Assembly (NCBI RefSeq): GCF_003977615.1
Contig: NZ_RYZR01000005.1
Coordinates: 62,001 to 126,000 of the forward strand
DNA length: 64,000 bases
DNA from: Dyella dinghuensis
Lineage (GTDB): Bacteria > Pseudomonadota > Gammaproteobacteria > Xanthomonadales > Rhodanobacteraceae
Direction of reading: 5' to 3'
In this document: one piece after another, positions 30,575 to 45,781 of the stretch
Layout: each line of letters opens with the position of its first letter
Numbering within the stretch: position 1 is the stretch's first letter
Notes under the pieces: generated by a model
What the model was told of the DNA's origin: nothing
Seen by the model: only the letters and a program-made list of their open reading frames with translations
The model's database searches: none
Translations under genes and position numbers: made by a program

Positions 30575-31789
30575 TCAAACCGTCCTTGTCGCCACCACCG
30601 GTGGCACGGCCGCAGCGCGCAACGCGGGCGCGAGTACCGCGAGCTGGCCCAGCGTCCACAACACCACGGCAGCAACGGGAAGGTAATAGAGCGGCAAGCG
30701 TGGCACTTCGTATTGCGTCACCAGCACAAGATTGAGCGCCAACGCAAACACGATGCCGAGCAAAATGCCTCCCGTGACGATGAGGAAATTCTCGGTGAGA
30801 AAGTAACGCAGGATATCGCCACGCGTTGCGCCCACCGCGCGACGAATACCGATCTGCCGGCGCCGCTGCTGCACCCAGAAGCTGGCCAGGCCGACGATGC
30901 CCAGCGCAGTGACCAGCATCAATGCAAGGATCACCCCTAACAGCATGCCAACCATGGCGCGGTCGCGTTCGAAATAATTGTGGCGCAGATCGCTGACGGT
31001 GTTGCTGTTGGCGTGATCGAACACGACATCCGGCGCCACCTTCGCGATGACGGCAGGCGCATCACGCACGATGCGTGGTATGTCGCTCGGGTCGGCGCGC
31101 ACCAGATAGGTACCGTTGAGGAAACGTCCCGGCATGGTTGGCACAAACGCCGACCATTCCGCCGTATTCGTGCCCCGGCTTCCGGGTTGCGCGATCGCCA
31201 AATGATCGACTACGCCTATGACGCGGAAATGGAATCTATCGCACCAGAATTCCTTGCCTAGAGGATCGGCTCCCGGCCACAAGTGCGCCGCGAGTGCTTT
31301 GCTTATTACCGTGCTCGAATCATCGGCAAAATAATCATGCAGTGGCAGATAGTCAGCCGCTTGTGGCCACACGCCTTCGACAAGCTTCATACCCAGCGCC
31401 TGCACAGTACCGGGTCCGCCCTGATAGAAGTCGATCTGACCGCCCTGGATTTGACCCGCACGATCCTTGTTGATCCCGGCCGAATCGACCTGCTGCCCGA
31501 ATGGAACGGTGTTGATAACACTGACCGACTGCACGCCAGCGATGCCGTGCAATCCGGCAATGATGCGCGCATTGACGTCCGGCCCCTGAGTGTCCTCAAA
31601 ACCAGTAACGACGACCAAAGCCAACGAGTTTTCGTCTACCCCGCTAACGATGCGCATATTGCCAATCCGGTTGGCAATCAGGAAACAGGCGTTGCACAGC
31701 ACGGCACACGCAAGCGCGATTTCCAGCGCAATCAACAAGGTCGCCAGGCGATGGTGGCGTAGCGCAGCGAGAATCGGTCGGATCTGCAT
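30575..31789 (-). CDS. FtsX/MacB-type permease, short type B5
   Basis: The last of ten permeases, 404 residues. It begins MQIRPILAALRHHRLATLLI, with one membrane helix at about 18-38, a large periplasmic MacB_PCD-type domain (about 40-270), and three C-terminal helices around the cytoplasmic QIGIRRAVGATRGDILRYFL coupling segment. It ends VPPVVATRTV. The start at 31789 was chosen because the upstream open frame runs through A5. It groups with B4 (VVSGV near residue 50, LASFWV motif). A5 ends 14 bp upstream. Confidence 0.9.
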   Translation of the reverse strand: MQIRPILAALRHHRLATLLIALEIALACAVLCNACFLIANRIGNMRIVSGVDENSLALVVVTGFEDTQGPDVNARIIAGLHGIAGVQSVSVINTVPFGQQVDSAGINKDRAGQIQGGQIDFYQGGPGTVQALGMKLVEGVWPQAADYLPLHDYFADDSSTVISKALAAHLWPGADPLGKEFWCDRFHFRVIGVVDHLAIAQPGSRGTNTAEWSAFVPTMPGRFLNGTYLVRADPSDIPRIVRDAPAVIAKVAPDVVFDHANSNTVSDLRHNYFERDRAMVGMLLGVILALMLVTALGIVGLASFWVQQRRRQIGIRRAVGATRGDILRYFLTENFLIVTGGILLGIVFALALNLVLVTQYEVPRLPLYYLPVAAVVLWTLGQLAVLAPALRAAAVPPVVATRTV

Positions 31790-31803
31790 GATGACGGCGC
31801 CCT

Positions 31804-33129
31804 TTAAAGTGTCTTCAATTGCAGCGCCGGAGGAATGCGGCTCGCGCGCAAGGCAGGCAGTGCACCGGCGATCAAGCTGACCACGAGGGCGAGCAAGAAC
31901 GTCGTGAGTAACATCGTGAGATCCAGATGGGCCATATCCGCGTAGGCGGCCGGCTGACGACGCACCACCCACAGCCCGATCATCGTGAGCAACCAACCGC
32001 CAACGCCACCGAGCACGCCAATCAACCCCGCCTCGACCAGGCACTGAGCGAACACCGCACCACGCGTGGCGCCAAGCGCGCGGCGCACACCGATTTCGCC
32101 GCTGCGGCGCAGAAATTTCGCGAGCAAAAGACCCACCGTGTTGAACAGGCAAATGGCGAGAAAGGCGAATGCCAGCCATGTCTGGAGCCGCACATCGCTG
32201 GGCACCACGCCGTTGAAATCCAGCCATTGCATCAAGCCGCGCATGCGGGTGTTGTCGGCATGCGTGAAGCGGCCCAAGGCTTTCTGTTGTGCCGCGTAAT
32301 CGTCTACAAAGCGCCGATAGCTTGCGACCTTTCCAGCATCGCCGAGCTGCACCCACAGCTGCACCCAATTGCACGGCGCCGCTTCAAGGTGCCCCGGCGT
32401 CGTTGGAATGCCCCAACAGTTGAACTGGTAGAAATGACCATCGTTGATTTCCAGCCCGCTAAAGAACGGCGCCATGACGTCCTCCGGCTTGCCGTAGAAG
32501 CTGGACGTATCGCCACCGCTGAAACGACCGCCCGCCACCGCATAGAACAATGGCGACGGCCGCCACGGTTTAAGTACACCGATGATGCGCACATCGCTAT
32601 CGCGCAAACGTAAGGTGCGGCCCACGCTATTCTGACCCGCGAACAACTTGTCGTTAAGGTCCGCCGAGATCACCGCCACACGCGCATGCCTGGCGTCGTC
32701 CTCCGCGCTCCACCCGCCGCCGTATTGGAATGGCACATCGAACATCGGAAAGAAATCGGCCGTCGTCGACAGCATCGTTTCCATCAATGGCGGTAAATCC
32801 ACACCCGGCGCACGCACCTTGAGCTGACTGTCCACGATCAGTGCCTGGCGGTCTGCGCGACGACTGCTCCACAGATCCATCGCCGAGCGGTAATCCATCA
32901 CATCGGGTGGCTGGGCGTGATTGCTTTCGTTGGTTGGATCGGTATCGACCTGCGGATAGAACAGCGTGGCACTCTTGCCAGGCATCGGATCGCCCGAAAG
33001 CAGATGCATGACCGTGAGCGTGGTCATGCTGGCACCGATACCCACCGCGATCGCCAGCACCATCAACGCCGTCAGCATTTTGTTGTGCTTGAGGCTGCGC
33101 ATGGCCAGATCGATGTAATACCCAAACAT
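31804..33129 (-). CDS. FtsX/MacB-type permease, long type A5
   Basis: A 441-residue permease beginning MFGYYIDLAMRSLKHNKMLT. One N-terminal membrane helix with GIGASMTTLTV, a periplasmic domain (about 45-310), then three helices with the coupling motif EIGVRRALGATRGAVFAQ, ending IPPALQLKTL. It shares with A4 the stretch after the first helix (VLSGDP or LLSGDP, then YYPQVD or FYPQVD), unlike A1-A3. It lies 17 bp downstream of B4 and pairs with B5. Confidence 0.91.
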   Translation of the reverse strand: MFGYYIDLAMRSLKHNKMLTALMVLAIAVGIGASMTTLTVMHLLSGDPMPGKSATLFYPQVDTDPTNESNHAQPPDVMDYRSAMDLWSSRRADRQALIVDSQLKVRAPGVDLPPLMETMLSTTADFFPMFDVPFQYGGGWSAEDDARHARVAVISADLNDKLFAGQNSVGRTLRLRDSDVRIIGVLKPWRPSPLFYAVAGGRFSGGDTSSFYGKPEDVMAPFFSGLEINDGHFYQFNCWGIPTTPGHLEAAPCNWVQLWVQLGDAGKVASYRRFVDDYAAQQKALGRFTHADNTRMRGLMQWLDFNGVVPSDVRLQTWLAFAFLAICLFNTVGLLLAKFLRRSGEIGVRRALGATRGAVFAQCLVEAGLIGVLGGVGGWLLTMIGLWVVRRQPAAYADMAHLDLTMLLTTFLLALVVSLIAGALPALRASRIPPALQLKTL

Positions 33130-33146
33130 ATGGCCCCCCTATGGAC

Positions 33147-34382
33147 TCACACCGAACGCGTTGCGACGACCGGCGGCACGGCGGCAGCGCGCATCGCCGG
33201 GCCAAGCACGGCACACTGGCCGATCAGCCAAAGCAGCGCTGCGCCAACCGGCAGATACATCACCGGCAAACGCGGCAACTCGTAATGCACAATCAGAAAA
33301 AGGTTGATGCCGTACGCCAGCACCATGCCGACCACGATCCCCATCGTGGTGAGCAGGAAATTTTCAGTCTGAAAATAGCTGAGGATATTGCTGCGCGTTG
33401 CACCGAGCGCACGCCGCACACCAATGCTGTGATTTCGCTGCGACACCCAGAAACTCGCAAGTCCGACGATTCCCAATGCAGTGATGATGAGCATGGCGAT
33501 GCAAACGCCGACAAGGATGCTGGCCATTGCACGATCATTCTGGAAGAAATCGCGCCGATGCTGCTCCATGGTGCCCTTCTCCAGCACGATGCGGTTGGGA
33601 TCGAGCGCCATCAGTTTTGCGACGGCCGCTTTGAGCACCTCGTCCCGATCTTTCGGCGCGGTACGCAGCACATACACCGAGCCTTCGGCCGAACCCTCCT
33701 GGATGGGCAACACAACGCTGTATTGAGCGCCTTTTGCCATCTGCATTTCACTGGGCCTCACCAAGGTCCCCACCACGCCCACAACGGTGAGAGGGACGTC
33801 CTGGCCTATATAGACCTGCTTGCCAAGCGCCTCCTGTCCTGGCCACAGACGATCCGCTACAGCGCGTGAAACGATGGCTGGGTTAGGCTGGTTGCCTAGC
33901 TCGCCTTTATCCAGTGCCTCAACAACTTTGCTCATCGGCACATATTCTTCGGGTCGAAAGTCGCGTCCCTCGACTATCTGCGCACCCAATACACGCAACA
34001 AATTTTCGCCGTGATACATGGCCGCACTGAGACTGTCCTCCCGCTGGCTCAGCGTTAAGCGCAGGCCTGCGTTGTCGGAACCATAGTCGAACGGGATCTG
34101 GTCGATCAGCGCCGCAGCCTTGACGCCGGATATGCCTTCCAGCGCAGCAATATCCGCCGCCGCACGCGCGGGCGCGTCAGGGCGATTGCCGATGTAAGCG
34201 GTCTTCACGTACACCAGTTCCTGTTCTGCGACACCGCTGACGACGCGCATGTTTTCAAGACGCTGGTCAATCAGAAAGATGGCGTTGCAAATGATCGCGC
34301 ATGTCAAAGCGATCTCGAGAATAAGCAGGCATGCCGTGAATTTGTGGCGCCGCAAAGTCATCAGTATGGGACGAATATCCAT
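33147..34382 (-). CDS. FtsX/MacB-type permease, short type B4
   Basis: A 411-residue permease, MDIRPILMTLRRHKFTACLL at the start. The first helix contains ALTCAIICNAIFLI; RLENMRVVSGVAEQE follows as in B5. The coupling motif is SIGVRRALGATRSNILSYFQ and the end is VPPVVATRSV. The preceding helix has LASFWVSQRNHS, replacing LTSFWVGQRRRQ of B1-B3. Only one base separates it from A4, which indicates coupled translation of the pair. Confidence 0.91.
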   Translation of the reverse strand: MDIRPILMTLRRHKFTACLLILEIALTCAIICNAIFLIDQRLENMRVVSGVAEQELVYVKTAYIGNRPDAPARAAADIAALEGISGVKAAALIDQIPFDYGSDNAGLRLTLSQREDSLSAAMYHGENLLRVLGAQIVEGRDFRPEEYVPMSKVVEALDKGELGNQPNPAIVSRAVADRLWPGQEALGKQVYIGQDVPLTVVGVVGTLVRPSEMQMAKGAQYSVVLPIQEGSAEGSVYVLRTAPKDRDEVLKAAVAKLMALDPNRIVLEKGTMEQHRRDFFQNDRAMASILVGVCIAMLIITALGIVGLASFWVSQRNHSIGVRRALGATRSNILSYFQTENFLLTTMGIVVGMVLAYGINLFLIVHYELPRLPVMYLPVGAALLWLIGQCAVLGPAMRAAAVPPVVATRSV

Positions 34383-34383
34383 A

Positions 34384-35688
34384 TCAATTCGCCTTCAATT
34401 GCAGTGCGGGAGGAATGTGGCAGGCACGCCACGCTGGAAGCACGCCCGCCACCAGGCTTGCACCGATAGCCAACGCAAAGGTCGCCAGCAGCATGGGCGT
34501 ATCCATGTGGGCAAGCGGGGCGTACTCCGCCGGCTGCTGTCGTACGCACCACAACCCGAACAGAGACAGCAAAAGCCCGAGAGCACCGCCAGCGAAACCG
34601 ATGGTGCCCGCTTCGATCAATAACTGTGCAAACAAAGCGCGGCGGGATGCCCCAAGTGCGCGACGCACGCCCAGCTCATTCGCGCGACGCATGAATTTCG
34701 CCAGCATCAGACCCACGGTATTGATGAGGCACACCACCAGAAAGCCCAGAGCCAGCCACGTTTGAAGACGCGCATCGCTAGGAACGACTTTCTGGAAGGC
34801 CAGCCATTGCATCATCGAACGCAAGCGGACATTCGGCGCCCGCGTGAATCGACCCAATGCGTGCTGTTCTTCCGAATAGTGCACGAGAAATGCCTGATAT
34901 TCGCTGACGCTCGCGGCATCATCCAGTTGAACCCAGAACTGCAGCCATACGCATTGCGACCGCTCCAGATCTTCTGGGCCGCCGTTGCCGTTGCCCCAGC
35001 AATCGACCGAACCCTCGTGTCCCATGTGCGTGGCGCGCGATGTGGTCAAGGGAACAAAAATATCTTCGTCGCTGGCGTAGTTACCCATATAGGGGTCGTA
35101 GAAATGCGGATTCGGATGCCAATCGCCCAGCACGCCGATGATGCGAAAATCCGCTCCTTGCAAGCGCAACGTTCCGCCCACGCTGTTCTTGCCGCCAAAT
35201 AATTTATCGTTCAAGTCAGAGCTGATAACGACGATGTGTGCTTTGCCAGCATCCTCCGCATCGCCCCATGCATTGCCGTACTTGAACGGCAAGCCGAACA
35301 TCGGAAAGAAATCTTTCGTCGTAAACAACGCCATGGCCCGGAAGGGATCGATGCTCGACTGCGTTGGCTGCAGTGGCACCATGCCGCCGGTCATCAATGC
35401 CTGCCGCGTTGCGCGCTTCGCATTCAACAGGTTCATGCCGTCGATCCACGCTACCTGCTCCGGCGGCTCCGCGCCGGGAACGTACTTGCTGATATCTTGG
35501 GGATCGACTTGCGGGTAATAAATCGATGCGCTGCGCCCCGGCAGTGGATCGCCGGAGAGCACGTGAAGCACCGTGAGTGTTGTCATGCTCGCGCCAATAC
35601 CCAACGCAATGGCCAGCACCATCAACGCGGTGAGCATGCGATTGCGCCTGAGCCCACGAAATGCGAGATCGAGGTAATAGCCAAACAT
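34384..35688 (-). CDS. FtsX/MacB-type permease, long type A4
   Basis: A 434-residue permease starting MFGYYLDLAFRGLRRNRMLT. One N-terminal helix (LMVLAIALGIGASMTTLTVL), a periplasmic domain, then three C-terminal helices with ELGVRRALGASRRALFAQ and the end IPPALQLKAN. It starts 47 bp after B3, and marks the change from the A1-A3 type to the A4-A5 type within the array. Confidence 0.91.
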   Translation of the reverse strand: MFGYYLDLAFRGLRRNRMLTALMVLAIALGIGASMTTLTVLHVLSGDPLPGRSASIYYPQVDPQDISKYVPGAEPPEQVAWIDGMNLLNAKRATRQALMTGGMVPLQPTQSSIDPFRAMALFTTKDFFPMFGLPFKYGNAWGDAEDAGKAHIVVISSDLNDKLFGGKNSVGGTLRLQGADFRIIGVLGDWHPNPHFYDPYMGNYASDEDIFVPLTTSRATHMGHEGSVDCWGNGNGGPEDLERSQCVWLQFWVQLDDAASVSEYQAFLVHYSEEQHALGRFTRAPNVRLRSMMQWLAFQKVVPSDARLQTWLALGFLVVCLINTVGLMLAKFMRRANELGVRRALGASRRALFAQLLIEAGTIGFAGGALGLLLSLFGLWCVRQQPAEYAPLAHMDTPMLLATFALAIGASLVAGVLPAWRACHIPPALQLKAN

Positions 35689-35735
35689 CAGACACTCCTA
35701 ATCCGATGACCCTGAGTTAGCGATTCAACCGAGCA

Positions 35736-36986
35736 TCACACCGTGCGTGTTGCCACGACGGGCGGCACGTTGGCTGCACGCATGGCCGGCACCAAAACCG
35801 CCAACTGACCTAGTACCAACACCGTGGCCAAACCGACCAACACGTACCAGAAAGGCATGGTCGTCATCTCGAAGTACTGGATCAGCGCGCGATTCAAGCC
35901 GATGGCCAGCGCAATGCCAACCACTGCACCGCCACCGGCAATCAACAGATTTTCGAGCTGGAAGTAATGCCGGATATCGATCTTGCGTGCACCTAGCGCA
36001 CGACGCACACCGATCTGCCGATGACGCTGCCCCACCCAGAAACTGGTCAGACCAACGATGCCCGCCGCAGTGACGGCCAGCAAAATCAGGCACACAACAC
36101 CCATCAGCGCTGCCATACCGATGTCGGCGCGATACGCATCGGCGCGGATCGCCCCAAAGGACTTCACGCTGTCATCGTCGAGCACACGCATGGGATTGAC
36201 CCCGTACAGCGCGCCGGGTATGGCATGCATCACCGCATCCATCCGTCCAGGCTTGGTGCGTACGGCGTAACGGGAATAATTGGCGTTAAGGCGAAGCGGT
36301 TCGATCGTCGAATTCCACACGAAAGTGCTCGCCCATGTGCCATTGCTGGGAACCTGCAAGCGCGCGACCACCCCGACAATCGTGGTCGGCTTGGTGCCGC
36401 CATCGAGGTACATCGCCTTGCCGACAGCACCTTGCGGAAATAACTTATCGGCAAGTTCTTTGGTCACCATCACCAAGGAAGGTTCGGCCGGATCGCGGAA
36501 CCCCTTATTGGTGACATCACCCGCCGTGAAGTTGCGGCCGGCAACCAGCTGCAGACCCAGCGTCTTCAGGAAGTTTTCGTCGCCAAAGTAATACGTGCTG
36601 CGTGCATCGCCTTTAATCAGATCCGAACCCGGCTTCGTCGCGACAGAGCCGTTCCAGCTGCTGTCGAGCAACGGCAATGAATTGCTGGGTGTAACCGAGA
36701 CGACATCCGGCATCGCACGCAAGGCTTCGATATCTTCGCGCTGCAGCTCATCGAGCTTCTGGATGCTGGCCGGATCGTCGCCGCTCGGCGCACCGACCCA
36801 TTGCTGGCTCACCAGAATGAGATTGGATTCATCCATGCCGGTCGGGCGATTCACTTTCTCAACGCGCGAATAGATGATGAAAACGGCGTTGCAGACGATG
36901 GCAAGCGTGAGCGCGATCTGCATCGCGATCAGCACAACGCCTGATTTGTGTTTGCGTAACGCGGCAATCATGGGATGCAAGGACAT
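35736..36986 (-). CDS. FtsX/MacB-type permease, short type B3
   Basis: A 416-residue permease. The ATG at 36986 (MSLHPMIAALRKHKSGVVLI) has a GAGGAGTG ribosome site; the open frame continues upstream through A3 but is out of context. The N-terminal helix has ALTLAIVCNAVFIIYSR. LTSFWVGQRHRQIGVRRALG is the coupling segment and VPPVVATRTV the end. It is the most divergent of the B1-B3 group in its periplasmic domain. Confidence 0.9.
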   Translation of the reverse strand: MSLHPMIAALRKHKSGVVLIAMQIALTLAIVCNAVFIIYSRVEKVNRPTGMDESNLILVSQQWVGAPSGDDPASIQKLDELQREDIEALRAMPDVVSVTPSNSLPLLDSSWNGSVATKPGSDLIKGDARSTYYFGDENFLKTLGLQLVAGRNFTAGDVTNKGFRDPAEPSLVMVTKELADKLFPQGAVGKAMYLDGGTKPTTIVGVVARLQVPSNGTWASTFVWNSTIEPLRLNANYSRYAVRTKPGRMDAVMHAIPGALYGVNPMRVLDDDSVKSFGAIRADAYRADIGMAALMGVVCLILLAVTAAGIVGLTSFWVGQRHRQIGVRRALGARKIDIRHYFQLENLLIAGGGAVVGIALAIGLNRALIQYFEMTTMPFWYVLVGLATVLVLGQLAVLVPAMRAANVPPVVATRTV

Positions 36987-36997
36987 GGCATCACTCC

Positions 36998-38320
36998 TCA
37001 ATTCGATTTGAGCTGCAGCGCGGGTTGAACGCGCGAGGCTCGCCAGGTGGGATAGAGGCCCGCTAGCACCGTCGCGATGACGGCGACGATCAGGGTCAGG
37101 ATCAACAAACTGAAATCCATACGGGCGAGCGTCGCGATCTCTTTCGGGAGTACCCACGCCACGCTCTTCACCCCGACCCATGTCAGCATCAAGCCAAGCA
37201 GGCCGCCCGCCGCGCCGACAATGCCGGCCTCGATCAGAAATTGCGTATAGATCGCGTTGCGCGGCGCACCAAGCGCCCTGCGCACGCCGATTTCCGAACT
37301 GCGGCGCAGGAACTTTGCCAGCAACAAACCGGCAGTATTTACCAGGCAGACAATCAGCAAGCCGAGTGCCACCACCAGCGACACCTGTGTATCGCTCGGC
37401 GCAACATGTTGGTCTTTCAACCATGCGGGCACGTCGCGCAAGCGATTGTTCACCGGCCAGCTGAAGCGTCCCGCCTCTTTCTGTTCGCGGAAATAACCAT
37501 CCAGGTAATCTCTATACGCGGCGACATCGGCCTTTTCGTCCAGCTCGACCATGTAGGCAATCCATATGCAGGTCGATTGCTGCAGGCCAACGAACCCGCT
37601 TCCCTTCGGAATTTCGTCGCAATTGGTATTGCCATCGTTAGCTATCCCCATATCGATAGCACGCCGAAACGGAAGGAACACGTCCTCGAAATCGGTCGTG
37701 AAGCCGCCTGTGTTCACCACATCGTAGAAAACGGGCTTCGGCGCCCAGTTGTCGAGCACGCCGACAATGCGATAGTCCTTGCCTTCGATGTCGAGCGTTT
37801 TGCCGACGCTGTTCACGCCGCCAAACAATTTCTGGTTGAGTTTGCTGCTGATCACCACAACGGCTGCGCTTTGCGTATCGTCACTGGCGCTCCAACCGCT
37901 ACCGTATTGGAACGGCACATCGAACATCGGGAAGAATTCGCTATAGACAGCGTGACCCCCGACATTGATCGGATGCATGCTTCGATCGGGCGGAATGATC
38001 GACGGCGATATGTGATACATCGCCGATTGATACTTGGCGCGATGCGCACGCATGAGCGCAACGGCGTCGTTGTAATCCATTGCATTCGGCGGCTCGGTGT
38101 CGGTGCCGCCCTGGCGCGCCTTGGGCCCCCAGATATCGATCTGCGGCACGAACAGCTTCGATGATTTCCATGGGATCGGATCGCCCGAGACGGCGCGAAA
38201 CACCGAGTAAGTCGTCATGGACGCGGCCACGCCGAAGCCGATGGCCAGCACCATCAACATGGTCAAGCCTGGACTCCGCTTGAGACTGCGTACGGCCAGA
38301 TCGATGTAATAGCCCAACAT
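36998..38320 (-). CDS. FtsX/MacB-type permease, long type A3
   Basis: A 440-residue permease beginning MLGYYIDLAVRSLKRSPGLT. After the first helix (GFGVAASMTTYSVFRAVSG) comes PIPWKSSKLFVPQIDIWGP, shared with A1 and A2. Coupling motif EIGVRRALGAPRNAIYTQ; end VQPALQLKSN. A GGAGGTG site precedes the ATG. It follows B2 by 53 bp, the widest gap between pairs, and precedes B3 by 11 bp. Confidence 0.91.
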   Translation of the reverse strand: MLGYYIDLAVRSLKRSPGLTMLMVLAIGFGVAASMTTYSVFRAVSGDPIPWKSSKLFVPQIDIWGPKARQGGTDTEPPNAMDYNDAVALMRAHRAKYQSAMYHISPSIIPPDRSMHPINVGGHAVYSEFFPMFDVPFQYGSGWSASDDTQSAAVVVISSKLNQKLFGGVNSVGKTLDIEGKDYRIVGVLDNWAPKPVFYDVVNTGGFTTDFEDVFLPFRRAIDMGIANDGNTNCDEIPKGSGFVGLQQSTCIWIAYMVELDEKADVAAYRDYLDGYFREQKEAGRFSWPVNNRLRDVPAWLKDQHVAPSDTQVSLVVALGLLIVCLVNTAGLLLAKFLRRSSEIGVRRALGAPRNAIYTQFLIEAGIVGAAGGLLGLMLTWVGVKSVAWVLPKEIATLARMDFSLLILTLIVAVIATVLAGLYPTWRASRVQPALQLKSN

Positions 38321-38373
38321 GGGGCACCTCCGCCCTTTGATTGATGTTCCTCTTGCGAGGATTTCTTCTTAAT

Positions 38374-39609
38374 TCAAACCGATCGTGTCGCTTCCACCGG
38401 CGGTACACGCGACGCGCGCAACGCCGGTGCAAGCACAGCGCCCTGCCCCAGCAACAACAGCACGACAGCGCCCACAAGCAGGTACGTGCCCGACAGGCGC
38501 GCCACGTCGTAATGCGTCACCATCCACAGATTGATGCCGATAGCCAGCAAAGTTCCCACGACGACCCCAGCCACACCGATCAGCATGTTCTCCGTCATGA
38601 AGTAGCTGAGAATGTCGTTGCGCGTCGCACCCAGCGCGCGCCGGATGCCGATCTGCCGGCGCCGCTGGCCTACCCAGAAGCTGGTGAGGCCCACGATGCC
38701 GGCGGCGGTAATCGCCAGCAGCACGGCACTGACGATGCCCATCAAGATGGCCATGCCGTAGTCGCGCTCGTAAGCCTTGGCACGCACTTGCGCAAACGTC
38801 ATCTCACCGTCGTCTGGATCGAAGATGCGCATGCGGTTTTGCGCAATCAGAGCTTTTGGCACATCGCGCATGGCTGCTTCCAGTTGTCCTGGCCGCGCCC
38901 GAATCAGGTAGTGCACATAACCTGTACCTACTTCTCGCATCGGCACCAGGACTGCGTTATACGCAAAGGCATTATCGTCGCTGTCCATCATGTGCGATTG
39001 CAGTGTGTCCGTGATGCCGACAATGGTCGAAGGCGTATTGTTATTGCTGGCGTAGATCTGCTTGCCGAGCGCGTCACCATTCGGGAACAGCACTTTCGCC
39101 AGATCCTTGCTGACGATGATCGCGGGCCATCCCTTCATGTCTTGAATCGTGAGCGATTGCACTTCGTCAGGCGTGAAATTGCGGCCCGCAATCAGCTTCA
39201 CACCCAGCGTACCCAGCGTATGTTCGTCCGCCAGGAAGACCGACGCATCCGTCGTCATATGGATCTGATCGGGCGTCATGCGAATGAAGTTGTCCCAACC
39301 GGTTCCATGCAGGGGAAAACTGTTGAGCGACGTGGCGTCCTGCACGCTGCCAAGCTGATGCAACGCGGTCAGATCGGCTTTGATTTGTGCATCGATATTG
39401 TCATTGGACGAGTTGTCCGCCCAGTCAGACGTGATGACAAAAAGGTTCGACTCATTCACGCCCGACGGACGACTGACGCGGGCAATGCGCTCGTGAATGA
39501 TGAATAGCGCGTTGCACACGATCGCCAGCGTCAGCGCGATCTGGAATCCAATCAGAATCGTGCCTGCCTTATGGCGGCGCATCGCGGCGAGTATGGGTTT
39601 GATCTGCAT
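38374..39609 (-). CDS. FtsX/MacB-type permease, short type B2
   Basis: A 411-residue permease with MQIKPILAAMRRHKAGTILI at the start, helix ALTLAIVCNALFIIHERI, then SRPSGVNESNLFVIT. LTSFWVGQRRRQIGIRRALG precedes DILSYFM, and the protein ends VPPVEATRSV. It is closest to B1 (both have GRNF/GRDF-containing periplasmic domains with a HTLGTLGVKLIAG or HFLRTLGLKLIAG stretch). It follows A2 by 10 bp. Confidence 0.91.
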   Translation of the reverse strand: MQIKPILAAMRRHKAGTILIGFQIALTLAIVCNALFIIHERIARVSRPSGVNESNLFVITSDWADNSSNDNIDAQIKADLTALHQLGSVQDATSLNSFPLHGTGWDNFIRMTPDQIHMTTDASVFLADEHTLGTLGVKLIAGRNFTPDEVQSLTIQDMKGWPAIIVSKDLAKVLFPNGDALGKQIYASNNNTPSTIVGITDTLQSHMMDSDDNAFAYNAVLVPMREVGTGYVHYLIRARPGQLEAAMRDVPKALIAQNRMRIFDPDDGEMTFAQVRAKAYERDYGMAILMGIVSAVLLAITAAGIVGLTSFWVGQRRRQIGIRRALGATRNDILSYFMTENMLIGVAGVVVGTLLAIGINLWMVTHYDVARLSGTYLLVGAVVLLLLGQGAVLAPALRASRVPPVEATRSV

Positions 39610-39619
39610 CGTCGTCGCC

Positions 39620-40942
39620 TCAGTTCGATTTCAGCTGCCAGGCCGGCTGCACTTGCGCGGCGCGCCATGTCGGATAAAACGCGGCAATCACCGTCGCCAA
39701 TACCGCCACGATGAGCGTCGTAAGCAACAACGACATATCGAGATGCGCCAGACGTGCGACGTCGGGCTCGAACAACAGCCCAATCCCCTGCATGCCCACG
39801 ATCGTCAACAGCAGACCCAGCACGCCACCCGCCAGACCGACGGTGGCCGCTTCCATCAGAAACTGTGCGTAGACTTCGCGACGCGTCGCGCCGAGCGCAC
39901 GACGCACGCCTATCTCCGACGACCGCCGCATGAATTTGGCGAGCAGCAAGCCAATCGTATTCACCAGGCAGATGATGAAGAAACCGATCGATACGAACAA
40001 TGAAATGCGGCTCTCGGCAGGCACCACTTTTTCGTGATCGAGCCACTCGGTCACATTACGCAAACGCACATTCGGCGCCCATTGGAAGCGGCCGGCTTGC
40101 TGCTGCTCGGCGGAATAGGCGGTGAGAAATTCTTTATAGCGTTCCGCGTCGGCCTGCGTCGGCAATTCGGCCCAGAACGGAATCCATGCGCACTCGCGAT
40201 GCAACCATTGCTCGTCGTTCGAGAAATGGGCCGGCGCACCGCCGCAATTGTTGCGCCCGGCCATGCCGACATGGATGTCGACGGCGCGATTAACGCTGAT
40301 GTAAACCTGCGCCGGGTTGGCGAACTCCATGTTGTCGTAGGCGTCGTAATAGCGAGGCTTCGGATCCCAATGCTCCGTCACGCCGACGATGCGATAGGCG
40401 TGCATATCCAGCGTCACATCGCGCCCGACGCTGTTCGCGCCGCCGAACAGCCGCTGATTCAATGCGTCACTGATCACCGCGACCGCCGCATGACCGTCGT
40501 CATCGGCATTCGTCCACGGCGAGCCGTATTTGAACGGCACGTCAAACATGGTGAAAAAATCCGCGGTGGTCGCGTAGCCGGTTGTCGTACTCGGTAAATC
40601 GTTGGCGTTTTGCGGAAGTACCGAAGGTGCGATGTCGTAGAGCATGGTCTGATGCGGCGCCTTGTGCGCCTGCATCAGTGCGACAGCATCGGTGTAATTG
40701 AGCGCGTCCGGCGGCTCGTTGCCTGGTTCGTTGTATTGCGGCCCACGGTTGTCGATCTGCACGTTGTAAAGCTGACTGGATTTCCACGGGATGGGATTGC
40801 CCGAGACCACACGAAACACCGACCACGTAATCATCGAAGCGGCCACGCCAAAGGCAATGGCCATCACCATCAATGCGGTAAGCACAGGGTTGCGCCGCAA
40901 GCTGCGCCACCCCAATCCCAGGTAGTAAACGAACATGCTCAT
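39620..40942 (-). CDS. FtsX/MacB-type permease, long type A2
   Basis: A 440-residue permease. ATG 40942 (MSMFVYYLGLGWRSLRRNPV) overlaps the B1 stop as ATGA, so adjacent pairs are translationally coupled here; ATG 40936 is an alternative. GFGVAAS-type first helix reads AFGVAASMITWSVFRVVSG. Coupling motif EIGVRRALGATRREVYAQ, end VQPAWQLKSN as in A1. A much longer upstream open frame runs through B1 and is rejected. Confidence 0.91.
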   Translation of the reverse strand: MSMFVYYLGLGWRSLRRNPVLTALMVMAIAFGVAASMITWSVFRVVSGNPIPWKSSQLYNVQIDNRGPQYNEPGNEPPDALNYTDAVALMQAHKAPHQTMLYDIAPSVLPQNANDLPSTTTGYATTADFFTMFDVPFKYGSPWTNADDDGHAAVAVISDALNQRLFGGANSVGRDVTLDMHAYRIVGVTEHWDPKPRYYDAYDNMEFANPAQVYISVNRAVDIHVGMAGRNNCGGAPAHFSNDEQWLHRECAWIPFWAELPTQADAERYKEFLTAYSAEQQQAGRFQWAPNVRLRNVTEWLDHEKVVPAESRISLFVSIGFFIICLVNTIGLLLAKFMRRSSEIGVRRALGATRREVYAQFLMEAATVGLAGGVLGLLLTIVGMQGIGLLFEPDVARLAHLDMSLLLTTLIVAVLATVIAAFYPTWRAAQVQPAWQLKSN

Positions 40943-42174
40943 GCCGGACGCGTCGCCTCGATCGGTGGTACGCGCGAGGCGCGCAATGCGGGAGCGAACA
41001 CCGCACCCTGCCCTAACAAAACCAGTGTCACCATGCCGCCTAATACATAGGTCAGCGGCAGGAATCCCAGCGAGAAGGTTTTTACGAGCCAGAGATTGAG
41101 TCCGAACGCCAGCAAGGTGCCGATAGCGATGCCACCCAGACTGATGAGCAGATTCTCGGTGAGGAAGTAATGCAGGATGTCGCGGTGCGTGGCACCCAGC
41201 GCGCGACGCACCCCGATCTGTCGCCGCCGTTGGCCGACCCAGAAGCTGGTCAGTCCGACGATGCCGGCCGCAGTGATCGCCAGCAGCACCGCGCAGATGA
41301 TGCCCATCAGAATGGCCATGCCGCGATCGCGCTCGAAGGCTTCCTCGCGAATCTGTTGATAATTGACCAGACCGTCTTTCGCAGGAAACATGCGCATGCG
41401 GTTTTCTGCATACAAGGCTTTGGGCGCCTCGCGCATCGCGTCGGCAAGCTGGCCCGGTTTGGCCCGCACTACGTAGAACACGCCCAACGGTTGCGCCAGC
41501 CGAAGCGGCCAGATCAGTGACTGGCCTGTATACGGTGCGCTCCACGTCGATACATCCTGGCGATGCAATGTATCGACAATACCGATGATGGTAGTTGGCG
41601 TGCTGCTCATCGAATAAAACGATTTGCCCAGTGCGTCGCCATTCGGAAACAACCGATCGGCGAGGGTCTTGCTGATGATGGTCACCGGCGGAATCGTGGA
41701 TTCACGCAGGCCCATGTTTTGCACTTCGCCGGCATTGAAATCGCGGCCTGCAATCAACTTCAAGCCAAGCGTGCGCAGGAAATGCTCATCGCCTACGTAG
41801 ACGGACGCATCGGTAGTCTTGGCGGTCTGATCGGGCTTCATGGTGATGAAGTTGTCCCAGCCACCGCCACGCAAAGGGTAACCGTCGGTGGGGGTAGCGT
41901 CGGCCACGCTCGGCAATTGCCGCAACGTAGCCAAGTCCTGCTGGACCTTCGCGGCTGCCTGCTCCTTCGTGTATTGCTCGCCCCACAGGTTGGCCATGGC
42001 AAACAGGTTGGGTTCGTCCACCCCGGTGGGTTCGGCAATATGCGCCAGGCGTTGATGGATGATGTACAGCGCGTTGCACACAATCGCCAGCGTCAGCGCG
42101 ATCTGCAAAGCAATAAGCACGGTACCGGCCTTGTGCCTGCGTAGTGCGGAAAGAATCGGCTTAATCTGCATCAC
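40939..42174 (-). CDS. FtsX/MacB-type permease, short type B1
   Basis: A 411-residue permease starting MMQIKPILSALRRHKAGTVL (ATG 42174 or 42171). First helix ALTLAIVCNALYIIHQRL, periplasmic domain to about 280, three C-terminal helices with LTSFWVGQRRRQIGVRRALG, and the end VPPIEATRPA. It follows A1 by 15 bp and overlaps A2 by 4 bp. Confidence 0.91.
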   Translation of the reverse strand: MMQIKPILSALRRHKAGTVLIALQIALTLAIVCNALYIIHQRLAHIAEPTGVDEPNLFAMANLWGEQYTKEQAAAKVQQDLATLRQLPSVADATPTDGYPLRGGGWDNFITMKPDQTAKTTDASVYVGDEHFLRTLGLKLIAGRDFNAGEVQNMGLRESTIPPVTIISKTLADRLFPNGDALGKSFYSMSSTPTTIIGIVDTLHRQDVSTWSAPYTGQSLIWPLRLAQPLGVFYVVRAKPGQLADAMREAPKALYAENRMRMFPAKDGLVNYQQIREEAFERDRGMAILMGIICAVLLAITAAGIVGLTSFWVGQRRRQIGVRRALGATHRDILHYFLTENLLISLGGIAIGTLLAFGLNLWLVKTFSLGFLPLTYVLGGMVTLVLLGQGAVFAPALRASRVPPIEATRPA

Positions 42175-42189
42175 AACGACTCCCTCGCC

Positions 42190-43500
42190 TCAGTTGGACT
42201 TCAATTGCCAGGCAGGCTGCACCTGCGCAGCACGCCATGCCGGGTAGAACGCGGCCGCCACAGCGGCAAGCACCGACACCAACAGCGTCAGTGCAACCAG
42301 CGACAGATCCAGATGCGCCAGTTGCGCGATTTCCTGATCGAACAGAAGGCTCACCCCGCTCATGCCCACCGCTGTGAGCAGCAGACCCAGCACACCGCCT
42401 GCGATACCCACCGAAGCAGCCTCGAGCAGGTACTGCGTGTAAATTTCCCGCCGCGTCGCGCCAAGCGCGCGCCGCACACCGATCTCGCCGGCACGACGCA
42501 TGAACTTCGCCAGCAGCAGGCCGATCGTGTTGACCAGGCAAATCACGAAGAAGCACAACGCCACGATCAGCGAGATACGGCTCTCCGGCGGAACGACGTT
42601 CTGCTGCGTCATGAATGCCATCACATCGAGCAACCGGATGTTGGCCGGCCAGCCGAAACGGCCCGCATGCTGCTGATCGGCGGCATAGCTGGTCAGGAAT
42701 TGCCGGTATTGCTCCGCGTCACTGCGCGTATTGAGTTCCACCCACGGCATCAGCCATACGCAATTGCTTTGCAGCCATTGATCCCAACCGGTGAAGGCGA
42801 GATTGCCGCGGCAACTGTTGCGTCCGGAAGAGTCGACATGCAGGTCGAGCATGCGATTGAGCAACACGTAGAAGTCCGGCGATTCAGAGAACCCGTCTTC
42901 GCCCCACACAGCGTAGAAGCGTGGCGCAGGGTTCCAATGCTGGGCTACGCCGACAATACGATAAGCATTGCCGCCAAGGACAATTTCCTTACCGACGCTA
43001 TTGGCGCCGCCAAACATGCGCTGATTGAATTCCTTCGTCAGAACGACATCGGCGGCGCGATGATCGTCTTCGCTGGTGTTCCAGCCGGAGCCGTAAAGAA
43101 ACGGCACCTCGAACATCGGGAAGAAATCGCCTGTCACCGCATAACCGGACGCGGACGACGGAACACTATCGGCATCCCTTCCGAGCGCCGACAACATCAC
43201 CGGATAAATCAAGGTCTGGCGCGACGCTTTATGCGCGCGCATCAACGCCATCGCATCGACGTAGTTGAGCGCTCCCGGCGGCTCGCCCTTTTCGTTCTGC
43301 TGCGGCCCCCAGCTATCGATCTGCGGTGCAAACAGCTGCGAGGACTTGTTCGGAATTGGATCATCCGACACCGCACGAAACACCGAGTACGTGATCATCG
43401 ACGCGGCCACGCCAAAACCGATGGCCATCATCATCAGTGCGGTGAGCATGGGATTGCGCCGCAGGCTGCGCAGGCCAAGTTGTAGGTAGTAGGCGTACAT
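42190..43500 (-). CDS. FtsX/MacB-type permease, long type A1
   Basis: The first permease after the ATPase gene, 436 residues, beginning MYAYYLQLGLRSLRRNPMLT at ATG 43500. The open frame continues upstream through a palindromic repeat into the ATPase end, which is not coding. First helix with GFGVAASMITYSVFRAVSD, periplasmic domain (about 45-310), coupling motif EIGVRRALGATRREIYTQ, end VQPAWQLKSN. B1 follows after 15 bp. Confidence 0.91.
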   Translation of the reverse strand: MYAYYLQLGLRSLRRNPMLTALMMMAIGFGVAASMITYSVFRAVSDDPIPNKSSQLFAPQIDSWGPQQNEKGEPPGALNYVDAMALMRAHKASRQTLIYPVMLSALGRDADSVPSSASGYAVTGDFFPMFEVPFLYGSGWNTSEDDHRAADVVLTKEFNQRMFGGANSVGKEIVLGGNAYRIVGVAQHWNPAPRFYAVWGEDGFSESPDFYVLLNRMLDLHVDSSGRNSCRGNLAFTGWDQWLQSNCVWLMPWVELNTRSDAEQYRQFLTSYAADQQHAGRFGWPANIRLLDVMAFMTQQNVVPPESRISLIVALCFFVICLVNTIGLLLAKFMRRAGEIGVRRALGATRREIYTQYLLEAASVGIAGGVLGLLLTAVGMSGVSLLFDQEIAQLAHLDLSLVALTLLVSVLAAVAAAFYPAWRAAQVQPAWQLKSN

Positions 43501-43546
43501 CGGCTCGTGGCTCGTCCATGTCGGATGAATGCAATGGCGAGAGTGG

Positions 43547-43582
43547 CCCTCGCCCCCGCCCTCTCCCCGCATGGGGAGAGGG
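43547..43582. repeat. REP-like hairpin (family A) inside the exporter operon
   Basis: A CCCTCTCCCC/GGGGAGAGGG stem with loop GCAT plus a C-rich shoulder lies in the 92-bp gap between the ATPase gene and permease A1, within a transcribed region. Confidence 0.65.
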
Positions 43583-43592
43583 TGCTCGAACA

Positions 43593-44315
43593 TCAGCCGC
43601 GGATTTGTCCGGCTGCCGCGGTATAGGCTGTGTGGAAGCGCGGATCTTCCGCGAGATCCACCACCTGACCGTCGATGATGTGCACGTTGCGTTGTGCGCG
43701 CGCGGCGAGTTCCGGATCATGCGTCACCATCACGATGGTGGCGCCTTCGCGATGGATTTCTTCGAGCAGTTCCAGAACGCCGCGTGCCATTTGCGTATCG
43801 AGGTTGCCGGTCGGTTCGTCGGCTAGAAGCAGGCGCGGCGTACCCGCCAATGCACGCGCAATCGCAACGCGCTGCTGCTGACCGCCGGAGAGTTCTGCCG
43901 GATAGTGCTTGGCGCGCGACGCGAGGCCCACGCGATCCAGCGCATTCATGATGCGCTCCTTGCGCTCGGCTGCTTTCATACCGCGATAGCGCAACGGCAC
44001 TTCGACGTTGTCGAACACGTTGAGGTCGGGAATGAGATTGAAGGCCTGGAAGATGAAGCCGATTTTCTCGTTGCGGATCTTCGAGCGCGCGTTGTCGTCG
44101 AGCTGGCTCACTTCGATACCGTCCAGGTGGTATTCGCCGCCGGTGAATGTTTCGAGCAAACCTGCAATCGTGAGGAAGGTGGTTTTGCCCGAACCGGACG
44201 GACCGGTAACGGCGACGAACTCGCCTTCTTTGACGTCGATGTTGAAGTCGCGAAGTGCGTACGTCTCCACCACTTCGGTGCGGTAAACCTTAGAAAGGTG
44301 AGTCATCTTCAGCAT
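43593..44315 (-). CDS. ABC transporter ATPase, MacB/LolD type
   Basis: The only ATPase in the array, 240 residues. Walker A GPSGSGKTTFLTIAG, Q-loop FIFQAFNLIPDLNVFDNVEV, signature ELSGGQQQRVAIARAL, Walker B LLLADEPTGNLD and switch VTHDPELAARA are all intact. FtsX-type permeases of the MacB/LolCE class use such ATPases as homodimers. AAGGA precedes the ATG. It must therefore serve several or all of the ten following permeases, unless ATPases from elsewhere take part. Confidence 0.95.
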   Translation of the reverse strand: MLKMTHLSKVYRTEVVETYALRDFNIDVKEGEFVAVTGPSGSGKTTFLTIAGLLETFTGGEYHLDGIEVSQLDDNARSKIRNEKIGFIFQAFNLIPDLNVFDNVEVPLRYRGMKAAERKERIMNALDRVGLASRAKHYPAELSGGQQQRVAIARALAGTPRLLLADEPTGNLDTQMARGVLELLEEIHREGATIVMVTHDPELAARAQRNVHIIDGQVVDLAEDPRFHTAYTAAAGQIRG

Positions 44316-44341
44316 GGTTGTGTCCTTCAGTTGAGGTTTTT

Positions 44342-44441
44342 GCCCCTCCCGCTTTTCTACGGGAGGCTGGGAGGGGGTGAAGGCTTGTCGTCACTCGACT
44401 CACCCCACCCCAGCCCCGCTCTGCGTACACAGAGCAGGGAG
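44342..44441. repeat. paired REP-like repeat (family A) between adaptor and ATPase genes
   Basis: CCCCTCCCGC...GCGGGAGG-type and CACCCCACCCC-containing arms in inverse orientation fill almost the whole 132-bp gap between adaptor and ATPase genes. Arm sequences differ in the hairpin tips (CTACGGG versus GTACACAG). Confidence 0.6.
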
Positions 44442-44447
44442 TAATCG

Positions 44448-45719
44448 TCAGCGGCTGATCACGACCCGCTGTGCGCCTTTAAAGTTGTCGGTGCCGGAGA
44501 TCACGATGTTGTCGCCTTCCTTCAGGCCATCGAGGATCTCGACTTTGTCGATGCTGCTTTCGCCTACGCGAATCGGCGTCTTGGTGGCGATGCCGTCGTT
44601 GACGAGGTAGGCGTAGCTGCCGCCGGATTCGTCGACGAACGAACCGCGCTGCACCGTCAGCACGTTTTCGCGGTGATCCAGCAGAATGCGCACGGACAGG
44701 CGCTGGTTCTGACGCAGCTGCTTGGGCGTGCTGCCATCGAAGCGCACGCGCGCGGCGACTTCGCCGTTGACGACTTCCGGCGAAATGGCGCTGACGATGC
44801 CCTTCCAGGTGTTGTCGTTGCCGCTGATCTCACCCGACATGCCGATGGCAAGATCGCGCGCGAAACTTTCCGGCACCTTCACTTCCACTTCGAGCGCGGA
44901 CAGATCGATCACGCTGAGCAGTTGTGCATCTTTCGCGACAGTAGCGCGCTCGGCGATAAAGAGCTGGCCGACCTGACCGTCGACCGGCGAACGCACGTTG
45001 AGATCGTCGACCTGGCGTTGCAGGTCTTTCACCAACAGCACCTGACGATCGTGCGCGAGTTTCTTTGCCTGGATGTCGAAGGTGCCGCTGTTGTTGTTGA
45101 GGTTGAGATCGGCTTGCGCGTGCTGCAGCGCGATGTCCGCTTTTTCGACGGAGTCCTTGGCGCGATCGACGTCCATCTCCGGCACGCCGCCCTGCGAATA
45201 CGCTTTCTCGTAACGATCCAGATCGCGCTTTGCGGTTTGATCGTCGATCTTGGCGTTGTCGTACGCCTTCTGCATCTGCGACGTTTGCATGCGTGCACTG
45301 TTCTGCGAACGCATGTAGTCCACTTGCATGGCATCGGCGTTGGATTCTTCCTGCGCGAGCTTGTTGACGAGTTCGGGACTGTCGATGAGCGCGAGCACTT
45401 CGCCCTTCTTGACGTTGTCGCCCGCATGCACTTTCAGCGTCACGGCACCGCCGTAAGTGGCGTAAAGCGTGGGACTGACGGCAGCGACCACCTGGCCTTC
45501 TGCCGCGATGTCGCGAATGAAGGGACCACGCTGTACCGTGGCGAAAGCCAATCGTGAAGCACTCACCGAAGAGTCGGCTGAGAACAGTCGCGCAACACCC
45601 GGCGCAAAAATCGCCAGCACAATTACAGCCGCGACGGCACCGCCAATCCAGAGCAGTTTCTTCTTGCGGCTTGGCTTGACGTTGATCAGTCGGTCCTGGG
45701 CCGAGGTGTCGCGAATCAT
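44448..45719 (-). CDS. periplasmic adaptor (HlyD/RND membrane-fusion) of the exporter
   Basis: A 423-residue membrane-fusion protein. A single N-terminal membrane anchor (KLLWIGGAVAAVIVLAIFAP) is followed by a lipoyl half-motif (GGAVTLKVHAGDNVKKGEVL), a long alpha-helical hairpin (about 115-230), a second half-motif (VRSPVDGQVGQLFIAERATV), a beta-barrel, and a membrane-proximal domain ending GTDNFKGAQRVVISR. Start ATG 45719 has AAGGGA before it. It would link the permeases to an outer-membrane channel; no TolC gene is present here. Confidence 0.93.
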   Translation of the reverse strand: MIRDTSAQDRLINVKPSRKKKLLWIGGAVAAVIVLAIFAPGVARLFSADSSVSASRLAFATVQRGPFIRDIAAEGQVVAAVSPTLYATYGGAVTLKVHAGDNVKKGEVLALIDSPELVNKLAQEESNADAMQVDYMRSQNSARMQTSQMQKAYDNAKIDDQTAKRDLDRYEKAYSQGGVPEMDVDRAKDSVEKADIALQHAQADLNLNNNSGTFDIQAKKLAHDRQVLLVKDLQRQVDDLNVRSPVDGQVGQLFIAERATVAKDAQLLSVIDLSALEVEVKVPESFARDLAIGMSGEISGNDNTWKGIVSAISPEVVNGEVAARVRFDGSTPKQLRQNQRLSVRILLDHRENVLTVQRGSFVDESGGSYAYLVNDGIATKTPIRVGESSIDKVEILDGLKEGDNIVISGTDNFKGAQRVVISR

Positions 45720-45751: not shown

Positions 45752-45766
45752 CTACACCCGATATCA

Positions 45767-45781
45767 GCAATCTGCGTGCCA
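45767..45781 (-). promoter_or_regulatory. consensus sigma-54 promoter of the exporter operon
   Basis: On the minus strand the sequence reads TGGCAC-GCAGA-TTGC, a full match to the -24/-12 consensus with correct spacing. Transcription would begin near 45755, giving a 36-nt leader to the adaptor ATG at 45719. The operon's own regulator is sigma-54-dependent and rpoN is in the same window. Confidence 0.85.

What the first reader, a model, noticed from the sequence alone, without database searches (positions are those of the whole stretch)
30575..45719. Ten FtsX-type permeases in five alternating pairs share one ATPase and one adaptor
The sequence shows an adaptor, one MacB/LolD-type ATPase, then A1 B1 A2 B2 A3 B3 A4 B4 A5 B5 without a second ATPase. 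Type A proteins are 434-441 residues and end in QLK; type B are 404-416 and end in ATR. Spacing within pairs is 1-15 bp. MacB-type transporters normally use one homodimeric permease fused to its ATPase, and LolCDE uses one heterodimer. Five heterodimers on one engine would give five exporters with different substrate domains (inference). The array probably forms a modular, multi-substrate efflux or envelope-remodelling system.
Basis: partly seen in the sequence, partly recalled or inferred. Interest (0 to 1): 0.88.

Follow-up and report, generated by a model that had tools for sequence, protein, structure and literature searches.

The report
One ATPase serving many exporter pairs
This bacterium carries five different two-part membrane exporters lined up behind one motor protein, and its relatives carry from one to twelve, which points to a pump with interchangeable heads that share a single engine.

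Summary
In detail: adaptor, one MacB/LolD-type ATPase and A1B1-A5B5. It understates the case. In 64 genomes (63 relatives I fetched, plus this one) the order adaptor-ATPase-(AB)n-sigma54 regulator-kinase recurs, with few exceptions, with n = 1 to 12. A and B are the two halves of the 'ADOP' duplicated permease; one off-array copy is a natural A-B fusion; A and B co-diverge pair by pair (r 0.83, permuted 0.07). This supports heterodimers. Further pairs lie away from any cognate ATPase: 52 A genes at 47 loci in 16 genomes, two of them here. Of 46 such pairs clustered, 36 group with array pairs, and 13 of the 52 carry the array's enhancer palindrome, which also marks pcm-tolC and an undescribed small-membrane-protein family. 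Best reading: a tripartite MacAB-TolC-like exporter whose single ATPase and adaptor energise interchangeable permease heterodimers, in cis and probably in trans. Physical sharing, export and substrates are inferred, not shown. Novelty: new variant of a known kind.

The parts
45848..45859 (.). enhancer-like palindrome TGTCCGCGGACA (proposed binding site of the sigma54 response regulator)
   Evidence: G000:C8:107848-107859; palindrome pattern upstream of the adaptor in 51 of 64 arrays, against 2 of 700 control upstream regions
45766..45781 (-). sigma54 -24/-12 promoter TGGCACGCAGATTGCT
   Evidence: no mismatch; loose form in 64 of 64 arrays, strict form in 52 of 64; controls 23 and 3 of 700
44448..45719 (-). 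periplasmic adaptor (HlyD/MacA type, 423 aa)
43593..44315 (-). ATPase (MacB/LolD type, 240 aa), the proposed shared engine
42190..43500 (-). permease A1
   Evidence: AlphaFold2 model, MacB fold
40939..42174 (-). permease B1
   Evidence: AlphaFold2 model, MacB fold
39620..40942 (-). permease A2
38374..39609 (-). permease B2
36998..38320 (-). permease A3
35736..36986 (-). permease B3
34384..35688 (-). permease A4
33147..34382 (-). permease B4
31804..33129 (-). permease A5
30575..31789 (-). permease B5
29072..30436 (-). sigma54-dependent NtrC-type response regulator
   Evidence: follows the array in most relatives (exceptions in the full report)
27574..28947 (-). sensor histidine kinase
   Evidence: same position in most relatives

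Best explanation
It is a tripartite, MacAB-TolC-like exporter built as one engine with several interchangeable heads. Each A-B pair is a split ADOP permease and forms one heterodimer (inferred). Every heterodimer docks on a dimer of the single ATPase through a conserved segment near the expected coupling helix, and under the single adaptor and a TolC (inferred). The periplasmic domains differ between pairs and set which substrate is taken (inferred). The kinase and sigma54 regulator at the end of the operon switch on the array through one enhancer palindrome and one sigma54 promoter; in relatives they also switch on some off-array pairs and small-membrane-protein genes, and the same palindrome stands before pcm-tolC (the sites are shown, the control is inferred). 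Permease pairs encoded elsewhere without an ATPase borrow the array's engine in trans (inferred).
For: A matches the first half and B the second half of TIGR03434, 10 of 10; a natural 857-aa A-B fusion. Within loci, A and B distances correlate at 0.83 over 638 paralogue pairs (1000 permutations: mean 0.07, maximum 0.25); A with the upstream B 0.12 over 445. Array size 1 to 12 behind one ATPase in 64 genomes. Paralogues' periplasmic domains diverge more than orthologues' at equal core distance in 10 of 10 bins, some small; docking segment 71-77% identical between paralogues, periplasmic domains 31-41%. 36 of 46 off-array pairs cluster with array pairs; no MacB/LolD-type ATPase in the fetched flanks of 47 of 47 off-array loci. 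Enhancer upstream of 13 of 52 off-array A genes. In 11 genomes, 39 of 45 exact enhancer sites lie at arrays (11), off-array pairs (6), small-protein genes (16) or pcm-tolC (6). TolC-type gene in or beside the operon in 9 of 64.
Against: No complex was modelled and nothing was measured. A and B duplicate as one DNA unit, so co-divergence would follow even without contact. 39 of 52 off-array A genes, including both in this genome, lack the enhancer, and some have their own regulators; 10 of 46 clustered off-array pairs group with no array pair. Two off-array pairs outside the 52 have their own ATPase (L258, L264). The enhancer is missing in 13 of 64 arrays, 11 of them single-pair. Six of 45 enhancer sites are unassigned (three of them not read), 11 of 31 listed small genes lack the enhancer, and no sigma54 box was found at the pcm-tolC sites. 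Slower ATPase evolution in multi-pair genomes is not corrected for phylogeny.
Confidence: 0.72

Rival explanations
1. Gene-dosage array: tandem copies of one exporter that raise the amount of a single activity, without different substrates.
For: All pairs share one fold family and the operon has one conserved promoter site; 7 of the 12 closest within-genome paralogue pairs listed are array neighbours, so tandem duplication makes new pairs.
Against: Window paralogues are only 34-62% identical; the same groups of pairs recur across many genomes; periplasmic domains diverge more between paralogues than between orthologues.
Confidence: 0.1
2. Shared engine in cis only: array pairs use the array ATPase, while off-array pairs use other, unidentified ATPases or act without one.
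For: 39 of 52 off-array A genes lack the enhancer; some have own regulators such as BlaR1-like M56 or LytTR systems; two further pairs have own ATPases; 10 of 46 off-array pairs group with no array pair.
Against: 36 of 46 off-array pairs group with array pairs; 28 off-array A genes lie in 11 genomes with exactly one ATPase match at E <= 1e-75 (more distant ATPases checked in this genome only).
Confidence: 0.2
3. Homodimers or mixed dimers (A2, B2, or A of one pair with B of another) assemble on the ATPase.
For: MacB itself is a homodimer (PMC5985334, passages); all A share a similar docking segment.
Against: Split-ADOP homology and a natural A-B fusion; pair-wise co-divergence and median spacing of 10 bp within pairs against 55 bp between them.
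Confidence: 0.12
4. Not an exporter but a set of sensors or stress transducers feeding the histidine kinase, as in BceAB-type systems.
For: Kinase and regulator follow the array in most relatives; BceB is among the structural relatives.
Against: An adaptor in the operon, a TolC-type gene in or beside it in 9 of 64, the palindrome before pcm-tolC; best structural matches are MacB.
Confidence: 0.1

Closest known systems
ADOP family duplicated permease (NCBIfam TIGR03434)
   Same: A matches the first half and B the second half. Sister loci in relatives (L254-L257) carry fused permeases of 800-814 aa behind one adaptor and ATPase, with the sigma54 regulator in three of the four stretches; the two in L257 match TIGR03434 along its whole length, one above (629.6) and one below (599.6) the cut-off of 622.3.
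   Different: Here the halves are separate genes in variable arrays, each far below the cut-off. [quoted passage not shown]
MacAB-TolC
   Same: HlyD-type adaptor, MacB-fold permeases, MacB/LolD-type ATPase, TolC linkage in some relatives.
   Different: ATPase separate, two permease types, and many pairs per ATPase instead of one fused homodimer.
LolCDE
   Same: Separate ATPase with a heterodimer of two MacB-type permeases (PMC5985334, passages).
   Different: LolCDE works without adaptor proteins (same passages); NCBIfam LolC, LolE and LolD models score well below cut-off here.
Darobactin exporter DarBCD
   Same: DarD is the ATPase's best NCBIfam hit (258.8 bits); the adaptor hits DarC weakly (77.8 bits, not its best hit).
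   Different: Both far below the cut-offs of 375 and 450 bits.
Shared-ATPase importers (MceG, FhuC, MsiK)
   Same: One ATPase for several permeases in uptake systems (PMC9947336 and PMC10147376: titles and starts of abstracts in listings; MsiK and the general statement recalled).
   Different: Those are uptake systems; this is a MacB-type array with an adaptor.
dssA operon of Rhodanobacter R179 (PMC11928319)
   Same: An ABC transporter permease in a 17-gene operon, with orthologues largely conserved in Xanthomonadales, needed for suppression of flg22-induced root growth inhibition (abstract and passages). 17 genes would fit adaptor + ATPase + six pairs + one gene + regulator + kinase.
   Different: Identity with this array is a guess: the passages seen give no locus or sequence, and supplements were not available.

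Membership tests
MacB-type (type VII) ABC transporter | MacB_PCD plus FtsX permease with MacB fold | tested here: met
   (Pfam and models for A1 and B1)
MacAB-TolC | HlyD-type adaptor encoded with the transporter | tested here: met
MacAB-TolC | ATPase fused to the permease, single homodimeric permease | tested here: not met
   separate 240-aa ATPase and two permease types
MacAB-TolC | works with a TolC-type outer membrane factor | tested here: inconclusive
   gene linkage only: TolC-type gene in or beside the operon in 9 of 64 genomes, palindrome before pcm-tolC in 6
ADOP (TIGR03434) | score above 622.3 bits as one fused protein of about 800 aa | tested here: not met
   halves score 152-191 bits each on their own half; the off-array A-B fusion scores 341.2
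ADOP (TIGR03434) | two homologous permease halves in fixed order | tested here: met
   A = half 1, B = half 2, 10 of 10
LolCDE | LolC/LolE/LolD family scores above cut-off | tested here: not met
   LolD 219.6 of 307.75; LolC 40.5 of 473 (A1); LolE 23.5 of 439 (A5)
Darobactin exporter | DarC and DarD scores above cut-off | tested here: not met
   77.8 of 450 and 258.8 of 375
Shared-ATPase transporter set | one ATPase physically serving several permeases | not testable with these tools
   only genomic inference; complexes could not be predicted

The most novel reading that the evidence does not exclude
A plug-in exporter regulon: one ATPase/adaptor engine serves an expandable set of permease heterodimers in cis and in trans, answering one kinase-sigma54 switch, and the co-regulated 52-76-residue membrane peptides (conserved N-terminal half, more variable tail with a cysteine pair in 8 of the 10 aligned) are its secreted cargo or its specificity subunits.
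Probability: 0.3. Interest if true: 0.88.

Novelty: new variant of a known kind. Interest (0 to 1): 0.77.

Why it matters
Shared ATPases are known for some uptake systems; a MacB-type exporter whose single engine takes many interchangeable, separately encoded heads would change how export capacity and specificity are counted in genomes, and would suggest an answer to which ATPase drives 'orphan' duplicated permeases. It also gives a compact candidate regulon (one palindrome, one sigma54 box) with an undescribed small-protein family, so sharing and substrate become directly testable by gene deletion in laboratory strains of Dyella or Rhodanobacter. A link to the plant-immunity phenotype of dssA in Rhodanobacter R179 would add a biological role, but is unproven.

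Tried and rejected
Rejected: gene dosage as the main reading. Rejected: a second dedicated ATPase in the window or this genome. Considered and set aside: the 55-58% ATPase seen in many relatives as the engine of off-array pairs; in the four loci fetched (L254-L257) it sits in its own operon with fused permeases, and 28 off-array A genes lie in 11 genomes with one ATPase match at E <= 1e-75. The sigma54-like site at 37356-37371 inside A3 is taken as chance.

Led nowhere: nine literature searches (open-licence PMC papers only) gave no paper describing the array; one search was left unused. Pfam gave nothing better than E 0.017 for the small proteins, and NCBIfam E 0.0005 for one of ten (NF040661). 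The dssA link could not be checked (supplements capped at 0). A-B complexes could not be modelled (single chains only).

Biases and limits: the 63 relatives surveyed are those I fetched, not a random draw, out of 114 with an ATPase match (three of which, by E-value and the lack of A genes, seem to have only the sister ATPase). The 16 genomes were chosen because searches suggested off-array A genes. The 11 genomes behind the count of 28 are G000 and ten of those 16 (G006, G010, G024, G038, G042, G051, G066, G089, G101, G113). 'No ATPase nearby' means within the fetched flanks, about 8 kb or less where contigs end, by the array ATPase's profile at 40 bits. The clustering took 46 of the 51 off-array pairs (not those of L259-L263); the fused copy L230 was left out. 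The ten relatives were hand-picked. One search showed only part of its hits; the 31 small genes counted are those listed, including weak hits with internal stops.
Full report
What is there. All genes of the finding are on the minus strand at the stated coordinates. Upstream to downstream: enhancer-like palindrome 45848-45859, sigma54 box 45766-45781, adaptor, ATPase, A1 B1 A2 B2 A3 B3 A4 B4 A5 B5, sigma54 response regulator 29072-30436, histidine kinase 27574-28947. Pfam gives HlyD domains for the adaptor, ABC_tran for the ATPase, MacB_PCD + FtsX for A1 and B1, and Sigma54_activat with a receiver domain, and HATPase_c, for the regulators. All ten permeases are uninterrupted reading frames. Compared with one relative (G038), dN/dS is 0.023 for the ATPase and 0.09-0.14 for the five window permeases with a clear orthologue and a finite dS (A1, A3, B3, A4, B4); dS was undefined for B1, and A2, B2, A5 and B5 have only paralogue-like best matches there (0.17-0.31).

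A and B are two halves of one known protein. In NCBIfam every A matches positions about 6-401 and every B about 410-801 of the 803-position ADOP 'duplicated permease' model: A1, B1, A5, B5 and the other six. Each half alone is far below that family's cut-off, so the split proteins are not filed as members. One off-array copy, in relative G080, is a natural fusion of 857 residues, with the A profile on 1-434 (572 bits) and the B profile on 450-857 (445 bits). AlphaFold2 models of A1 (mean pLDDT 88.2) and B1 (93.9) have the MacB fold; the best solved match of both is MacB of Acinetobacter.

Pair number varies behind one ATPase. In one search, 115 of 117 family genomes have an ATPase match at E <= 1e-75; in three of them (G056, G097, G108) it seems to be only a sister type, and those three have no A gene. 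I fetched the surroundings in 63 relatives; with this genome, 64. Pair counts by number of A genes: 1 in 19 genomes, 2 in 5, 3 in 5, 4 in 8, 5 in 8, 6 in 7, 7 in 7, 8 in 1, 9 in 1, 11 in 2, 12 in 1 (G087 is cut by the fetched stretch). Adaptor and ATPase stand at one end in all 64. At the other end the regulator was not detected in G032, G008 and G087 and is reversed in G025, and the kinase was not detected in these four or in G004 and G050. Nine of the 64 have a TolC-type gene in or beside the operon by one profile; two such genes from named relatives were confirmed as Pfam OEP. Of 80 named loci with at most 10 kb downstream, 40 show a closed single-pair operon (among them Massilia, Duganella, Roseateles, Solimonas, Lysobacter, Arenimonas), 31 have two or more A genes (among them Dyella, Rhodanobacter, Luteibacter, Frateuria, Oleiagrimonas, Stenotrophomonas, Luteimonas), 8 are cut short by the contig and one (L209) has a split B. 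Exceptions to alternation: B-B tandems in G059 and L150, a broken A frame in L147. L135 looks like an inverted duplication, perhaps an assembly fault.

The unit is A-B. Over 260 pairs in 67 loci the gap A-to-B has median 10 bp and B-to-A 55 bp. Within loci, A and B distances correlate at r = 0.83 (638 paralogue pairs), against a mean of 0.07 and a maximum of 0.25 in 1000 permutations, and at 0.12 when each A is matched to the B upstream of it (445 pairs; 0.80 with its own B on the same set). The best match of a pair in another array is the same pair for A and B in 7902 of 9914 cases (chance 20%). Because A and B duplicate together, this shows joint descent; it fits contact but does not prove it.

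Constant dock, variable head. Among the seven pairs of this genome, mean paralogue identity is 77% (A) and 71% (B) in the segment around the expected coupling helix (its place is recalled from MacB-type structures), 56-57% in the membrane core and 41% (A) and 31% (B) in the periplasmic domain. At equal core distance, paralogues diverge more in the periplasmic domain than orthologues in 10 of 10 bins compared, some of them with few cases. In genomes with three or more pairs the ATPase evolves more slowly relative to the regulator (ratio 0.55, against 0.69 in single-pair genomes), which is suggestive only, since genomes are not independent.

Off-array pairs. This genome has two more A-B pairs, at C8:712551-715081 beside an M56/BlaR1-like gene and C9:247927-250480 beside a LytTR kinase-regulator pair, with no ATPase in the 15-kb stretches read. 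In 16 other genomes, chosen for having extra A genes, 117 A genes were found, 66 of them in the arrays. Leaving out one in G014 that has a complete operon of its own (L264), the 50 others and the two of this genome make 52 off-array A genes at 47 loci. In the fetched flanks of these 47 loci no MacB/LolD-type ATPase was found; four loci carry other ABC domains at 50-67 bits. One further pair, in G012, has its own ATPase (L258). On clustering of 304 pairs, 36 of 46 off-array pairs fall in groups with array pairs, for example 11 with 59 array pairs, 8 with 41, 4 with 33, 9 with 18; 10 of 46 fall in groups of their own. So the same kind of pair can sit behind the ATPase in one genome and alone in another.

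One switch. A sigma54 box lies 48-78 bp before the adaptor in 64 of 64 arrays (loose pattern; strict in 52), against 23 and 3 of 700 upstream regions of other genes of the same loci. The palindrome TGTCCGCGGACA lies further upstream in 50 of 64 and a near form in one more, against 2 of 700 for the pattern; it is missing in G041, G054 and 11 single-pair genomes. Searched genome-wide as an exact 12-mer it occurs 4 times here and 3-9 times in ten hand-picked relatives, 45 sites in all; the reversed control occurs once. Of the 45, 11 are at arrays, 6 at off-array pairs, 16 before small-protein genes, 6 before pcm-tolC and 6 unassigned, three of which were not read. In those 11 genomes 6 of 21 off-array A genes and 20 of 31 listed small genes have it. 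Of the 52 off-array A genes, 13 have the exact palindrome within 350 bp upstream, 10 of them with a sigma54 box as well, mostly 76-80 bp from the palindrome but 55 and 99 bp in two; neither off-array pair of this genome has it. No sigma54 box was found at the pcm-tolC sites.

An undescribed small-protein family. Downstream of palindrome and sigma54 box (77-81 bp apart in the sites read) lie genes for proteins of 52-76 residues with, by eye, one hydrophobic segment and, in 8 of the 10 aligned, two cysteines in the tail. Pfam gives nothing better than E 0.017, NCBIfam E 0.0005 for one of ten members. They occur in 70 of 117 family genomes at E <= 0.001: in 40 of 45 surveyed genomes with two or more A genes and 1 of 19 with one. 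This may only reflect lineage, and G023, which has neither the ATPase nor an A gene, has one hit (4e-10). MacB-type pumps are reported to export the enterotoxin STII peptide and, for PvdT, to act on a periplasmic substrate (PMC5985334, passages); the small proteins could likewise be cargo, or equally accessory subunits. This is a guess.

Substrate hints. Off-array pairs lie beside a radical-SAM protein and a C39-peptidase exporter (L250) and beside a methyltransferase gene with a short precursor-like gene (L234); peptidase-like genes (DUF885 in one confirmed case; an alpha/beta hydrolase by eye) stand in several arrays; the ATPase's best NCBIfam hit is the darobactin exporter's, below cut-off. 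Together they lean towards peptides, weakly. In PMC11928319 a Rhodanobacter permease gene, dssA, in a 17-gene operon is needed for suppression of a plant immune response (abstract and passages); whether it is this array is unknown.

Conclusion. Ordered by strength: the architecture and its variation are shown; A-B pairing is well supported; sharing of the ATPase in cis is the simplest reading; sharing in trans is supported by grouping and the common enhancer but incompletely; substrates are open.

Noticed in passing
G000:C9, locus L271:2601-2780 and 2812-3042 (+): Two tandem genes for 59- and 76-aa proteins with one hydrophobic segment behind the array's palindrome and a sigma54 box; undescribed family, several copies in many relatives.
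   Followed up: partly
L254-L257 (relatives G104, G080, G041, G115): Sister operon with adaptor, a 57-58% identical ATPase and fused 800-814 aa permeases (two in L257 confirmed as ADOP-like), with sigma54 regulator in three of four stretches.
   Followed up: partly
L250:3610-10916 (relative G010): An off-array A-B pair beside a radical-SAM protein and a C39-peptidase ABC exporter, RiPP-like.
   Followed up: partly
L234:4703-9362 (relative G104): An off-array pair beside a short precursor-like gene (by eye), two proteins without Pfam match and a methyltransferase.
   Followed up: no
L002:4425-6428 and a 128-aa gene upstream of it: Off-array pair of this genome beside a BlaR1-like M56 peptidase and a small gene that looks BlaI-like by eye; similar neighbours, by eye, at L220, L227, L232, L235 and L251.
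   Followed up: no
L270:2443-4651 and relatives L272, L275, L280, L283, L285: The array's palindrome lies before pcm-tolC in six genomes, without a recognisable sigma54 box.
   Followed up: partly
G038:C3:1660449 (L273): Palindrome and sigma54 box before a 400-aa protein that looks by eye like a serine hydrolase of the beta-lactamase type.
   Followed up: no
G000:C6:168563 (L266): A fourth exact palindrome in this genome with no sigma54 box and no clear target.
   Followed up: no
L135 (Rhodanobacter sp. C06): Head-to-head inverted copy of ATPase, TolC-type gene and pairs, possibly an assembly artefact.
   Followed up: no
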